Positions 10,292 to 29,320 of a DNA stretch of 64,000 nt are shown here, one piece after another. The stretch is from Cypionkella aquatica. Its GTDB lineage: Bacteria > Pseudomonadota > Alphaproteobacteria > Rhodobacterales > Rhodobacteraceae. The stretch covers positions 558,920-622,919 of the forward strand of contig NZ_BSPP01000007.1 in assembly GCF_030161095.1 (NCBI RefSeq), read 5' to 3'. Under the pieces are notes generated by a model. It was not told where the DNA came from. It saw only the letters and a list, made by a program, of their open reading frames with translations, and ran no database searches. Numbering within the stretch: position 1 is the first letter of the stretch; each line of letters begins with the position of its first letter. The translations under genes and the position numbers were made by a program.

Positions 10292-10657
10292 GTGGACCAT
10301 CTTCTTCGTGAATATCTGCCCATCCTGATTCTTCTTGCGATTGCGACCGGGCTTGGCCTTGTGCTGATCCTTGCCGCCGCCGTGATCGCGGTGCGCAACC
10401 CTGACCCGGAAAAGGTCTCGGCTTATGAATGTGGCTTCAATGCCTTCGACGATGCGCGGATGAAGTTCGACGTGCGGTTTTACCTCGTCTCAATCCTGTT
10501 CATCATCTTCGACCTTGAGGTGGCCTTCCTGTTCCCTTGGGCCGTGGCCTTTGGACAGATCAGCATGGTCGGGTTCTGGTCGATGATGGTGTTTCTGGCG
10601 GTGCTGACCGTGGGCTTTGCCTATGAGTGGAAAAAAGGAGCACTGGAATGGGCGTGA
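10292..10657 (+). CDS. nuoA: NADH-quinone oxidoreductase subunit A
   Basis: NuoA is a small membrane subunit of complex I near the quinone site. The 121-residue product has three hydrophobic helices. It carries the family segment [13 protein letters not shown], whose Cys lies in the flexible loop facing the quinone channel, and [25 protein letters not shown] start at 10292, preceded by GAAGGAG, gives the normal length. The frame is open further upstream but lacks family similarity there. It is the first gene of a long operon, and its end overlaps nuoB by ten bases. The 259 bases between the creA and nuoA starts should hold the operon promoter; I could not define it confidently. Confidence 0.95.
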
Positions 10658-11181
10658 TGACGGGTGCCAATACCGCAGGGCCTGACCGCGAGGTTGCCAC
10701 GCAAGCGCTGAACCGCGAGTTGCAGGACAAGGGTTTTCTGCTGACCACGACCGAAGATATCATCAACTGGGCACGCAATGGCAGCTTGCACTGGATGACT
10801 TTTGGTTTGGCCTGCTGCGCGGTTGAGATGATCCACACCTCGATGCCGCGCTACGATCTTGAGCGTTTCGGTGCGGCGCCACGGGCCTCCCCGCGGCAGT
10901 CGGATCTGATGATCGTCGCGGGCACGTTGACCAACAAGATGGCCCCGGCGCTGCGCAAGGTTTACGACCAGATGCCAGAGCCGCGCTATGTGATCTCGAT
11001 GGGCTCTTGTGCGAACGGCGGCGGCTATTACCACTACAGCTATTCGGTGGTGCGTGGCTGTGACCGCATCGTGCCGGTCGATGTTTATGTGCCGGGCTGC
11101 CCGCCGACAGCGGAAGCGCTGCTGTATGGCATTTTGCAGTTGCAGCGGAAAATCCGCCGCACTGGCACGCTTGTGCGCTAA
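10648..11181 (+). CDS. nuoB: NADH-quinone oxidoreductase subunit B
   Basis: NuoB carries cluster N2, the last iron-sulfur centre before quinone. The 177-residue protein has the tandem cysteines in LACCAVEM, a further Cys in GSCANGGG and another in [12 protein letters not shown], which together ligate [4Fe-4S] N2. The ATG at 10648 follows AAAAAAGGAG at a good distance and is preferred over the in-frame ATG at 10627. It overlaps the end of nuoA. Confidence 0.97.
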
Positions 11182-11190
11182 GGGGGCGTT

Positions 11191-11787
11191 ATGGCTGATC
11201 TGACCCAACTCGCCACCTATCTGATCGAAGCCCGCCCGGATGCGGTGCTGGCCACTGAAATCGCCTTTGGCGAGCTGAATGTGACCGTGGCACTGCCTGC
11301 GCTGGTGTCTTTCGTGGGCTTTCTCAAGGCCGATCCCGCTTGCAAATTCTCTTCGCTGGTCGACATCACCGCCGTCGATCACCCCGAGCGGGTGGCGCGG
11401 TTCGATGTGATTTATCACTTTCTGTCGATGTACACCAACACCCGCATCCGCCTGAAAGTCGCTGTGGCCGAGGATGAGATGGTGCCCTCGATCTATCTCG
11501 CTTATCCCGCCGCGAATTGGTTCGAGCGTGAAACCTTCGACATGTTCGGCATCCTGTTCTCGGGCCACCCGGATTTGCGTCGGATCTTGACCGATTACGG
11601 CTTTCGCGGCCATCCGCTGCGCAAGGATTTCCCGACAACGGGATATACCGAAGTCCGCTATGATGAAGCGCAGAAACGGGTTGTCTACGAGCCGGTTTCG
11701 CTGGTGCAGGAATACCGTCAGTTTGATTTCATGAGCCCGTGGGAGGGTGCGAAATACATCCTTCCGGGTGATGAGAAAAAGGCCTGA
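11191..11787 (+). CDS. nuoC: NADH-quinone oxidoreductase subunit C
   Basis: NuoC is the 30-kDa-type peripheral-arm subunit. The 198-residue product has the conserved signature around [12 protein letters not shown] and the following [23 protein letters not shown]. It is separate from NuoD, unlike the fused NuoCD of E. coli, as is normal in alphaproteobacteria and mitochondria. The start ATG at 11191 is ten bases downstream of the nuoB stop. Confidence 0.97.
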
Positions 11788-11790
11788 GCG

Positions 11791-26346: not shown

Positions 26347-26350
26347 GACC

Positions 26351-27874
26351 ATGAATTACCTTCTTTCCATCATCATCTTCCTGCCCGCAGTCGCAGCCGC
26401 CATCATGGCGCTGTTCCTGCGCGGATCAGGAGAGGCCACCGCCACCAACGCCAAATGGCTGGCACTGATCGCCACCACGGCGACGTTTCTCGTCTCGCTG
26501 TTCGTGCTGAAGGGCTTTGATGCGACCAACACCGGCTTTCAGTTTGTCGAAGAGGCCAATTGGATCGTCGGGCTGAAATACAAGCTGGGCGTCGATGGTA
26601 TCTCGATCCTGTTCGTGATGCTGACCACGTTCCTGATGCCGATCACCATCCTGTCGTGCTGGGGTGTCAGCGACCGCGTCAAGGAATACATGATCGCCTT
26701 CCTGCTGCTGGAAACGCTGATGCTTGGCGTGTTCCTCGCGCTTGATCTGGTGCTGTTCTATCTGTTCTTCGAGGCAGGTCTGATCCCGATGTTCCTGATC
26801 ATCGGCATCTGGGGCGGGCAGAACCGGATTTATGCGGCGTTCAAGTTCTTCCTCTATACCTTCCTCGGCTCGGTGCTGATGCTGGTGGCGATGATCGCGA
26901 TGTATATGGCGGCGGGCACCACCGATATTCCCACGCTGATGGCGTTCCAGTTTGACAGCGCCCCGATGGTGGTGCTGGGCATGACCATCACCGGTGGCTT
27001 GCAGACGCTGCTGTTCTTGGCGTTCTTCGCGTCTTTCGCGGTGAAAATGCCGATGTGGCCGGTGCATACCTGGCTGCCCGATGCGCACGTTCAGGCCCCG
27101 ACGGCGGGCTCTGTGGTGCTGGCGGCGATCTTGCTGAAAATGGGCGGCTATGGCTTTTTGCGCTTTAGCCTGCCGATGTTCCCGGTTGGGGCAGAGGTGC
27201 TTTCAAACCTTGTGTTCTGGATGTCGGCAATTGCCATCGTCTACACCTCGCTGGTGGCGCTGGCGCAGTCGGATATGAAAAAGCTGATCGCCTATTCGTC
27301 CGTTGCCCATATGGGTTACGTCACCTTGGGGATTTTTGCCGCCAACCAACAAGGCGTGGACGGTGCGATTTTCCAGATGATCAGCCACGGCTTTATCTCG
27401 GGCGCGATGTTCCTGTGTGTGGGCGTGATTTACGACCGCATGCACACACGCGAGATTGACGCCTACGGTGGCCTTGTGAACCGGATGCCCGCCTACGCCT
27501 TGGTGTTCATGTTCTTCACCATGGCCAATGTCGGCCTGCCGGGGACCAGCGGCTTTGTCGGTGAATTCCTCGTGCTGGCCGGGATCTTCCAGGTCAACAC
27601 CTGGGTCGCGGCCGTCGCCACATCGGGCGTGATTTTCTCGGCGGCCTACGGGCTTTACCTTTACCGCCGCGTCGCCTTCGGCGCATTGGTGAAGGAAGCC
27701 TTGGCAACCATTCAGGACATGAGCCGGCGCGAGCGTGCCATCTTCGCGCCGCTGATCGTGATGACCCTGCTGCTTGGCGTCTATCCGGCCTTGGTGCTGG
27801 ATATCATCGGGCCATCGGTGAAGGCGCTTGTTGACAACTACCAAGTGGCCGTGACGGCCTTTGCTGCGAACTAA
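26351..27874 (+). CDS. nuoM: NADH-quinone oxidoreductase subunit M
   Basis: NuoM (ND4 type) is an antiporter-like proton-pumping subunit. The 507-residue protein has about 14 hydrophobic helices. It carries the family segment [22 protein letters not shown] with its conserved Lys/His neighbours, and the acidic residue in [12 protein letters not shown]. It begins four bases after the nuoL stop. Confidence 0.97.
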
Positions 27875-27886
27875 GGAACAGACCAG

Positions 27887-29320
27887 ATGACTGCGACTGA
27901 CTTTCATACAGTTCTGCCCGAGGTTTTGCTGGCGCTTTATGCGATGGCGGCCCTGCTTGCCTGCGTTTATGCGGGCAAAGATGCGCTGACGGGTGTTGTG
28001 ACTTGGGCGACGGCGGGGGTGTTCGTGGCACTTGCCGCCTATATCGGTTTCGCGGGCGAAGGTGCCAATCTGGCCTTCGGCGGCATGTTCATCGACGACG
28101 CCTTCTCGCGTTTTGCCAAAGTGGTGATCCTGCTGTCGTCCGCCGGGGTGCTGGTGATGGCGCAGGATTACATGGCGCGCAACGATATGGGGCGGTTTGA
28201 ATACCCCATTCTGATCGCGCTTGCGGTCGTTGGCATGATGTTCATGGTGTCGGCTGGCGATCTGATGCTGATGTATCTCGGGCTAGAGCTGCAATCCTTG
28301 GCGCTTTACGTTGTGGCCGCGATGCGGCGCGATTCCGTGAAATCGACCGAGGCCGGTCTGAAATATTTCGTGCTGGGCTCGCTGTCCTCGGGCTTGCTGC
28401 TTTATGGCGCGTCTTTGGTCTATGGCTATGCGGGCACCACTTTGTTCTCGGGCATCCTGACCACCTTGGATGCAGCGCATCTGGGGCTGGTGATTGGCCT
28501 TGTGTTCCTGATCGCGGGCATGGCGTTCAAGGTCTCGGCGGCACCGTTCCATATGTGGACGCCGGACGTTTACGAAGGCGCACCGACCCCCGTGACCGCT
28601 TTCTTCGCGACCGCGCCCAAGGCTGCGGCGATGGCGATGATTGCGCGTGTGTTGTTCGATGCGTTCGGTGCGATCCCGGCGCAATGGGGGCAGGTGCTGG
28701 CGGCTTTGGCGGTGGTCTCGATGTTCCTCGGCGCAACTGCCGCAATCGGCCAACGCGACATCAAGCGCCTGATGGCCTATTCCTCAATCGCGCATATGGG
28801 CTACGCCTTGGTCGGTCTGGCGACGGGCACGGCAGAGGGCGTGCAGGCGATGCTGATCTATATGGCGATCTACGTCACCATGAACCTTGGCACCTTCGCT
28901 TTCATTATGTCGCTGGAAAAAGACGGCAAGCCGATCAGCGATATCGACAGTCTGAACATGTTCTCGAAGCGCGAGCCTTTGAAGGCGCTTGCCGTGCTGA
29001 TCCTGATGTTCAGCTTGGCCGGTGTGCCGCCGATGCTGGGCTTTTTCGGCAAATTCTACGTGCTGAAAGCCGCTGTTGATGCGGGCATGACATGGCTGGC
29101 ACTGGCGGGGGCTGTGGCCTCGGTGATCGGTGCGTTCTACTATCTGCGCATCGTGTTCTTCATGTATTTCGGGCGGGATACCGAAGGCGCGTCCAGCCGG
29201 ATGGCGCCGGTGCAATGGCTGATGTTGGTGGCGGTGGCCGCGGTGATGCTGCTTGGCGTCGTCAACCTGTTCGGCATCGAAGGCGTTGCTGCGGCGGCGG
29301 CTGCAGCTCTTGTCGGCTAA
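27887..29320 (+). CDS. nuoN: NADH-quinone oxidoreductase subunit N
   Basis: NuoN (ND2 type) is the third antiporter-like subunit. The 477-residue protein has about 14 hydrophobic helices. It carries [14 protein letters not shown] and [23 protein letters not shown], which hold the conserved Glu and Lys/His positions. It is the last nuo gene. Its 3' end overlaps the start of birA, so the operon continues. Confidence 0.97.

What the first reader, a model, noticed from the sequence alone, without database searches (positions are those of the whole stretch)
10292..29320. Complex I operon carries ten extra genes, most of them small exported or membrane proteins
Between nuoC and nuoJ I count ten non-nuo genes: NTF2-like (11791), Cys-containing exported (13444), His-rich membrane (15054), DUF5337 (15322), exported C...FKGGC (16853), lipoprotein (17161), DUF5333 (17583), DUF3291 (17987), lipoprotein (20508) and CMD-like (22509). 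They sit in coupled overlaps (ATGA/GTGA) or with tiny gaps, so co-expression with complex I is expected. At least five are predicted to be exported, although complex I has no periplasmic electron chemistry. This could be an uncharacterised assembly, lipid-interface or redox-quality module of Rhodobacteraceae complex I.
Basis: partly seen in the sequence, partly recalled or inferred. Interest (0 to 1): 0.7.

Follow-up and report, generated by a model that had tools for sequence, protein, structure and literature searches.

The report
Four conserved accessory genes inside complex I operon
The respiratory complex I operon of this Rhodobacteraceae bacterium really does carry ten extra genes, but only four of them are kept across the family at fixed places, which makes those four good candidates for unstudied helpers of complex I, while the others look like lineage-specific passengers.

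Summary
In detail: ten non-nuo ORFs sit between nuoC and nuoJ. In 113 Rhodobacteraceae operons, one per genus, they split. Four keep a fixed slot: DUF5337 before nuoF (107/112), DUF5333 between nuoF and nuoG (93/109), a lipoprotein between nuoG and nuoH (93/108), a Cys-free CMD-like protein before nuoJ (99/108); 75 of 108 operons have all four. The rest are patchy: NTF2-like 7/109, FKGGC 1/109, X6 lipoprotein 15/109, DUF3291 34/109, X2 1/113. The His-rich gene is a shortened relative of a family in 60/112. The conserved lipoprotein was in none of 237 other alphaproteobacterial genomes; its best 80 GTDB hits all lie between nuoG and nuoH. None of the four is named among the subunits of the P. 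denitrificans cryo-EM complex I in the passages read, but in the genus inferred to be Paracoccus that lipoprotein is divergent (20 of 20 genomes). Best reading: four dedicated, non-stoichiometric biogenesis or quality-control factors, two of them periplasmic, plus passengers. No function is shown. Side finding: NuoF and NuoG share a C-terminal hydrophobic-Ala-Ala-Glu ending.

The parts
11791..12177 (+). X1: NTF2/SnoaL-like protein (Pfam Lumazine_bd_2), soluble; patchy passenger
   Evidence: 46.5 bits; 7/109 C-D slots; no hit in nearest relative's operon
13444..13827 (+). X2: exported Cys-containing ORF, orphan, weakest as a gene
   Evidence: GC3 0.50; 1 of 113 operons; 1 of 292 genomes; no plasmid match
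13828..15045 (+). nuoE with an Ala/Pro-rich linker and an extra C-terminal domain (HhH-like, label uncertain)
   Evidence: NuoE domain by Pfam; the C-terminal domain is in NuoE of 99 of 113 operons
15054..15320 (+). X3: two-helix membrane protein with His-rich tail; shortened member of the two-helix-linker-HhH-like family of the nuoE-nuoF slot
   Evidence: window copy found at E 3.7e-11 by a profile built without it; family in 60/112 slots
15322..15540 (+). X4: DUF5337, two-helix membrane protein, conserved accessory gene 1
   Evidence: 107/112 slots; median 9 bp before nuoF
16853..17164 (+). X5: exported protein ending FKGGCK, tandem paralogue of X6
   Evidence: X5-X6 hhalign 99.5%; 1/109 slots
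17161..17478 (+). X6: lipoprotein of a two-Cys superfamily, patchy
   Evidence: 15/109 slots; related to family f6 at 97.2%
17583..17990 (+). X7: DUF5333, exported all-helical protein with two invariant Cys, conserved accessory gene 2
   Evidence: 93/109; C48 and C114 in 60 of 60 aligned; AF2 pLDDT 90.5
17987..18490 (+). X8: DUF3291, soluble, patchy; ends MAAE like NuoF and NuoG
   Evidence: 34/109
20508..20909 (+). X9: lipoprotein (lipobox Cys20; invariant Cys69, Cys125), predicted beta-beta-alpha-beta-beta-alpha, conserved accessory gene 3
   Evidence: 93/108 slots, named set 80/80; invariants; AF2 pLDDT 88
22509..22922 (+). X10: Cys-free CMD-like protein, conserved accessory gene 4
   Evidence: 99/108 slots; overlaps nuoJ by 4 bases in the window
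10292..29320 (+). host operon nuoA-nuoN

Best explanation
Two kinds of genes share the operon. (1) X4, X7, X9 and X10 are a family-specific accessory set dedicated to complex I, acting as biogenesis or quality-control factors rather than stoichiometric subunits. Inferred mechanism: X9, a lipoprotein translated just before NuoH, and X7, a small helical protein with a conserved Cys pair, work on the periplasmic face of the membrane arm; X4, a two-helix protein translated just before NuoF, sits in the membrane; X10, a CMD-fold protein coupled to NuoJ and without Cys, works in the cytoplasm as a scaffold rather than as a peroxidase. Three of the four (X4, X9, X10) are made directly before the subunit they precede, giving timed, matched amounts. 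(2) X1, X2, X5, X6 and X8 are lineage-specific passengers that use insertion-tolerant junctions of the operon; X3 is an eroded member of a half-conserved family. Shown: presence, fixed positions, retention, family restriction in the draws made, purifying selection, predicted folds. Inferred: every functional step.
For: Retention and fixed slots of the four in 113 genus-level operons, with 101 of 108 keeping three or four. X9 median identity to the window is 62.7%, against 71.1% for NuoJ and 60.3% for NuoE. dN/dS of the four against the nearest relative: 0.11-0.34. Short gaps or overlaps to the next nuo gene. Outside the family: X9 in none of 237, DUF5337 above cut-off in none of 140, DUF5333 in none of 140 genomes drawn. 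Not among the subunits named for the solved Paracoccus complex in the passages read.
Against: No experiment links any of the four to complex I. Operon co-retention alone can reflect selection for expression. X9 is missing in 14 of 108 operons (15 if one copy outside its slot is not counted), X7 in 16 of 109, X10 in 9 of 108 and X4 in 5 of 112, so none is indispensable. X7 is only about 34% identical across the family. Two operons (L029, L034) have none of the four, though L029 has a lipoprotein ORF in the nuoG-nuoH slot that single-linkage clustering had put with X9. Fold searches gave no informative match for X9 or X7.
Confidence: 0.5

Rival explanations
1. All ten are passengers: small envelope genes that exploit the expression of the nuo operon and have no tie to complex I.
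For: 508 extra ORFs in 61 operons, median 8 and up to 17 per operon, 304 of 508 outside the four families and only 7 on the minus strand. The junctions C-D, D-E, E-F, F-G and J-K vary from almost nothing to kilobases. By a crude heuristic, passengers and the four have the same share of predicted membrane or exported proteins: 200 of 304 and 130 of 204.
Against: The retention figures are split: four families at 85-96% in fixed slots, the other families scored at most about 54%. Pure passengers should now and then be found elsewhere; the 80 best X9 hits never are.
Confidence: 0.3
2. Some of the four, X9 above all, are true but loosely held subunits of complex I that are lost on purification, or are atypical only in Paracoccus.
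For: In the genus inferred to be Paracoccus, the source of the structure, X9 is a divergent form in 20 of 20 genomes tested (50-65 bits against about 200), with about 300 codons of open frame in the one read. So the structure does not speak for the typical X9. X4 is a small two-helix protein of a kind that gel-band mass spectrometry can miss; in that work two small hydrophobic core subunits were themselves missed.
Against: The 2.3 A nanodisc map, in the passages read, was modelled with no such subunits, although the Paracoccus-like operon carries X4, X7 and X10. 14 of 108 operons do without X9.
Confidence: 0.15

Closest known systems
Unidentified reading frames (URFs) of the Paracoccus denitrificans nqo and Rhodobacter capsulatus nuo clusters (recalled from 1990s papers; not found in the library searches)
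   Same: Extra small genes between nuo genes in the same family (recalled); the Paracoccus-like operon L032 has X4, X7, a divergent X9 and X10
   Different: Here retention is scored over 113 genera, separating four conserved genes from passengers, with predicted structures
Supernumerary subunits of P. denitrificans complex I (NDUFS4, NDUFS6, NDUFA12, CI-PIMT)
   Same: Additions to a 14-subunit core
   Different: None of the four conserved genes is named there (passages); the X9 and X4 profiles found no PDB sequence match of weight
Pfam DUF5337 and DUF5333
   Same: X4 and X7 are members well above cut-off
   Different: Functions unknown; no paper in the library holds either name
Carboxymuconolactone decarboxylase (CMD/PcaC) family
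   Same: X10 matches CMD, 61.3 bits, and PDB 2af7
   Different: No Cys in 19 of 19 aligned members, a 40-50 residue N-terminal extension, fixed place between nuoI and nuoJ

Membership tests
DUF5337 (PF17272) | profile match above curated cut-off | tested here: met
   X4 103.6 bits against 27
DUF5333 (PF17267) | profile match above curated cut-off | tested here: met
   X7 110.9 bits against 27
DUF3291 (PF11695) | profile match above curated cut-off | tested here: met
   X8 157.1 bits against 23.5
CMD family (PF02627) | profile match above curated cut-off | tested here: met
   X10 61.3 bits against 23
AhpD-type peroxidase within CMD-like proteins | redox Cys pair (recalled as CxxC) | tested here: not met
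   no Cys in X10 nor in 19 of 19 aligned members; 17 of 182 X10 ORFs of the wider set have a Cys in their last 90 residues
4-carboxymuconolactone decarboxylase PcaC | TIGR02425 equivalog cut-off | tested here: not met
   48.4 bits against 155.7
Bacterial lipoprotein (X9) | signal peptide with lipobox Cys | tested here: met
   Cys20 in 53 of 53 aligned; lipobox pattern in 166 of 174 ORFs
Stable complex I subunit | present in purified complex or its structure | tested here: inconclusive
   not among the subunits named for P. denitrificans in the passages read; other species not tested, and X9 is atypical in that genus
Complex I assembly factor | loss impairs assembly; binds intermediates | not testable with these tools
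   needs deletion and pull-down

The most novel reading that the evidence does not exclude
Rhodobacteraceae carry an undescribed complex I biogenesis set that works on both sides of the membrane, with a dedicated periplasmic lipoprotein (X9) and a Cys-paired helical partner (X7) acting on the membrane arm. It has escaped notice because the model organism with a solved complex I, Paracoccus, has an atypical X9.
Probability: 0.3. Interest if true: 0.75.

Novelty: new variant of a known kind. Interest (0 to 1): 0.52.

Why it matters
Extra reading frames in these operons have gone unexplained (recalled as noted since the 1990s). The survey reduces ten candidates to four and says which to delete first. 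Periplasmic helpers of a bacterial complex I would be unexpected, since most known assembly factors act in the matrix, the cytoplasm or the inner membrane (recalled). The result also warns that Paracoccus may be a poor guide for X9. The shared NuoF/NuoG ending, if it is a recognition signal, would give a direct handle on N-module maturation or turnover.

Tried and rejected
Rejected: a single ten-gene module. Rejected: X10 as an AhpD-type peroxidase (no Cys in the aligned members). Rejected: X9 and X7 as sequence relatives of a solved complex I subunit (best E 0.066, best E 5e-6 to the repeat protein BurrH, with no single stretch passing, taken as chance). Led nowhere: Foldseek on the X9 model (best E 0.015, ACT-like domains, TM 0.35) and on X7 (best E 3.9); NCBIfam (only a weak 'CC0125/CC1285 family lipoprotein' hint, E 0.041, 3 of 53); plasmid searches with X2 and X9 (no match); literature on DUF5333/DUF5337 (none) and on nuo reading frames (none, nothing on the subject seen in the listings; in PMC9696053 the two passages shown were reference-list entries). 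The idea that the AAE ending of DUF3291 is tied strictly to nuo was weakened: 10 of 31 nuo-linked and 1 of 5 other rows end AAE among 30 loci (one row per match, some of them poor). hhalign links f7-X6 and X6-X9 (71% and 64%, 22 columns each) were set aside as probable signal-peptide matches, f7-f6 (80%, 47 columns) as unclear; X5-f6 and X5-X9 gave no link (below 1%), so X5 joins that superfamily only through X6. The name 'HhH' for the extra domain rests on a below-cut-off match (HHH_5, E 0.021) of one relative from the nuoE-nuoF slot; the window's NuoE itself gave no such match.

Limits of the counts: the genus-level set is the window, 60 operons chosen as the best NuoF matches and 52 from the remaining genera; one second genome of a genus (L163) was dropped; L166 and L152 are short and L030 is broken, hence denominators of 108-113. 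The earlier 61-operon tally gave X3 1/61 because its relatives were missed from a single sequence; one search supersedes it. Gene calling in the 61 operons is my own crude method. For the X9-empty operons a wrong handle (G149) was entered, so two of the 14 (L149 and L015) were not tested genome-wide.
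Full report
Setting. The window is G000:C7:558920-622919 of a 4.04 Mb genome. The nearest named relative of X9 is from Pseudorhodobacter sp. PARRP1 (L062, 90%), so the host is probably a Pseudorhodobacter or close kin (inference).

The observation. Ten ORFs that are not nuo genes lie between nuoC and nuoJ on the coding strand. X1 is NTF2-like (Lumazine_bd_2), X4 DUF5337, X7 DUF5333, X8 DUF3291 and X10 CMD-like; the other five have no Pfam family above its cut-off. 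X2, X5, X6, X7 and X9 start with a signal peptide or lipobox (read by eye from the sequence). Junctions range from 4-base overlaps to 104 bp. Against the nearest relative's operon (L062) X3-X10 have dN/dS 0.11-0.34, the nine nuo genes compared 0.03-0.16; X1 and X2 gave no hit there.

Which genes are kept. I collected one operon per genus for 113 genera of the family and searched them with iterated profiles. In the expected slot, over slots with both flanking nuo genes: X4 107/112, X10 99/108, X9 93/108, X7 93/109; against X3-like 60/112, X8 34/109, X6 15/109, X1 7/109, X2 1/113, X5 1/109. In the 80 named loci nearest to the window's X9 the figures were X4 70/70, X10 70/71, X7 59/74, X3-like 34/70, X6 30/74, X8 27/74, X5 3/74, X1 2/59, X2 0/66 (X9 is 80/80 there by selection). 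Two further families not in the window's list lie in the same operons: f6 (lipoproteins, F-G slot, 49 of 113 loci) and f7 (D-E slot, 41 of 113). Of 108 operons intact from E to J, 75 have all four conserved genes, 26 have three, 5 have two and 2 have none. X4 ends a median of 9 bp before nuoF, X9 13 bp before nuoH (starts taken from tblastn, so approximate), and X10 overlaps nuoJ by 4.

Bound to complex I genes. That set was picked by X9, not by nuo, so it is a fair test of location, though only of close relatives. Twelve genomes with an empty slot have no X9 match anywhere (12 of 12 tested, of 14 such operons). The window's genome has one match each to X4, X7 and X9.

Family-specific. In a draw of 240 alphaproteobacterial genomes X9 was found in 3, all of the family, and in none of the other 237; in draws of 142, DUF5337 exceeded its cut-off in 2, both of the family, with two sub-threshold matches elsewhere, and DUF5333 in 2, both of the family. 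The X10 profile matches general CMD proteins in 48 of 142, but at 71 bits or less outside the family against 221 and 235 for the two family members. The crowding is also a family trait: nuoF-nuoG gaps are 81 bp or less in 49 of 56 measured loci of the class draw, some genomes counted twice and family members included, but 183 bp or more in 59 of 60 measured operons of the first family set.

What the proteins look like. X9 has 33 invariant columns among 53 sequences from the nearest-kin set, including Cys20 (lipidation), Cys69 and Cys125; AlphaFold2 gives beta-beta-alpha-beta-beta-alpha at mean pLDDT 88. X7 has Cys48 and Cys114 in 60 of 60 sequences and is nearly all helical at 90.5. That each Cys pair forms a disulphide is inference. 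Neither has a usable PDB fold match. X5 and X6 are tandem paralogues (hhalign 99.5%), X6 is related to f6 (97.2%) and f6 to X9 (93.3%, 95 columns), so the F-G and G-H lipoproteins may be one old superfamily. X3 is a shortened member of a family of two membrane helices, an Ala/Pro-rich linker and a C-terminal domain; the same domain ends NuoE in 99 of 113 operons and lies in an E-F ORF in 74 of 113. The window has it on NuoE only.

Is any of them a subunit? The 2.3 A P. denitrificans structure paper (PMC11522691, passages read) names NDUFS4, NDUFS6, NDUFA12 and a methyltransferase besides the core; the earlier purification paper (PMC8115037, section 6 and passages) left several additional proteins unassigned or as likely contaminants, and its supplementary list was not read. 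The operon closest to P. denitrificans (L032, NuoC 94% identical to PDB 8qby_C) carries X4, X7, X10 and a divergent X9, and all 20 genomes tested of that genus have a weakly scoring X9. So X4, X7 and X10 are probably not firm subunits in Paracoccus, and nothing can be said for canonical X9.

Verdict. The four conserved genes satisfy what genomics can ask of dedicated accessory factors; the function is inferred. A R. sphaeroides Tn-seq paper (PMC5513736, passages) scores nuoA-N as essential on LB, and the complex I isozyme paper (PMC4859585, passages) shows that complex IA is needed for several growth modes; neither speaks of the extra genes in the passages read.

Side finding. NuoF and NuoG end in the same four residues, hydrophobic-Ala-Ala-Glu: NuoF Ala-Ala in 112/112 and Glu in 107/112, NuoG Glu in 106/109, both AAE in 101/108, with varied codons and, for NuoF, a tail of varied length before it. 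Among 508 extra ORFs 13 end AAE, 12 of them X8. In the 30 best-matching genomes of a class draw (two of them of the family) NuoF ends in AAE (18) or AA (12), whereas NuoG ends AAE in 7 of 30 and in a TGTHG-like tail in most of the others. This looks like a short C-terminal recognition signal, perhaps for maturation or turnover; nothing here tests that.

Noticed in passing
16835-16849 (nuoF end), 18476-18490 (X8 end), 20490-20504 (nuoG end): NuoF, NuoG and the DUF3291 protein end in the same tetrapeptide MAAE; hydrophobic-AAE is kept in NuoF and NuoG across the family, and AA or AAE ends NuoF in all 30 class-level loci examined.
   Followed up: partly
13828-15045 (nuoE) and 15054-15320 (X3): NuoE carries an extra C-terminal domain (HhH-like, label uncertain) after an Ala/Pro-rich linker; in 74 of 113 operons the same domain is in an ORF of the nuoE-nuoF slot, typically a two-helix membrane protein of which X3 is a shortened relic.
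   Followed up: partly
25597-25811 (42-bp unit; related rows to 25880), inside nuoL: Tandem 42-bp repeats (5.1 copies) encode an Ala-rich 14-residue repeat in an insertion of NuoL; the Paracoccus structure paper reports a flexible periplasmic insertion in its ND5. Whether it is the same loop was not checked.
   Followed up: no
23538-23557 and 23576-23595, nuoJ-nuoK gap: Two perfect 20-base palindromes, GGTGCGTGC-NN-GCACGCACC, 38 bases apart, the only copies in the window with up to 2 mismatches; possible hairpins or a repeat element.
   Followed up: no
L032 (G276, Paracoccus-like) nuoG-nuoH slot: The X9 homologue of this genus is divergent (20 of 20 genomes score 50-65 bits) and sits in a longer open frame, so the genus with the solved complex I is atypical.
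   Followed up: yes
L002-L061 nuo operons, gaps C-D, D-E, E-F, F-G, J-K: The nuo operon is a general accretion site in this family: median 8 and up to 17 extra ORFs per operon in 61 operons, including a sulfotransferase-like family in C-D (17 loci; label recalled from the sequence, not searched) and many small membrane proteins.
   Followed up: partly
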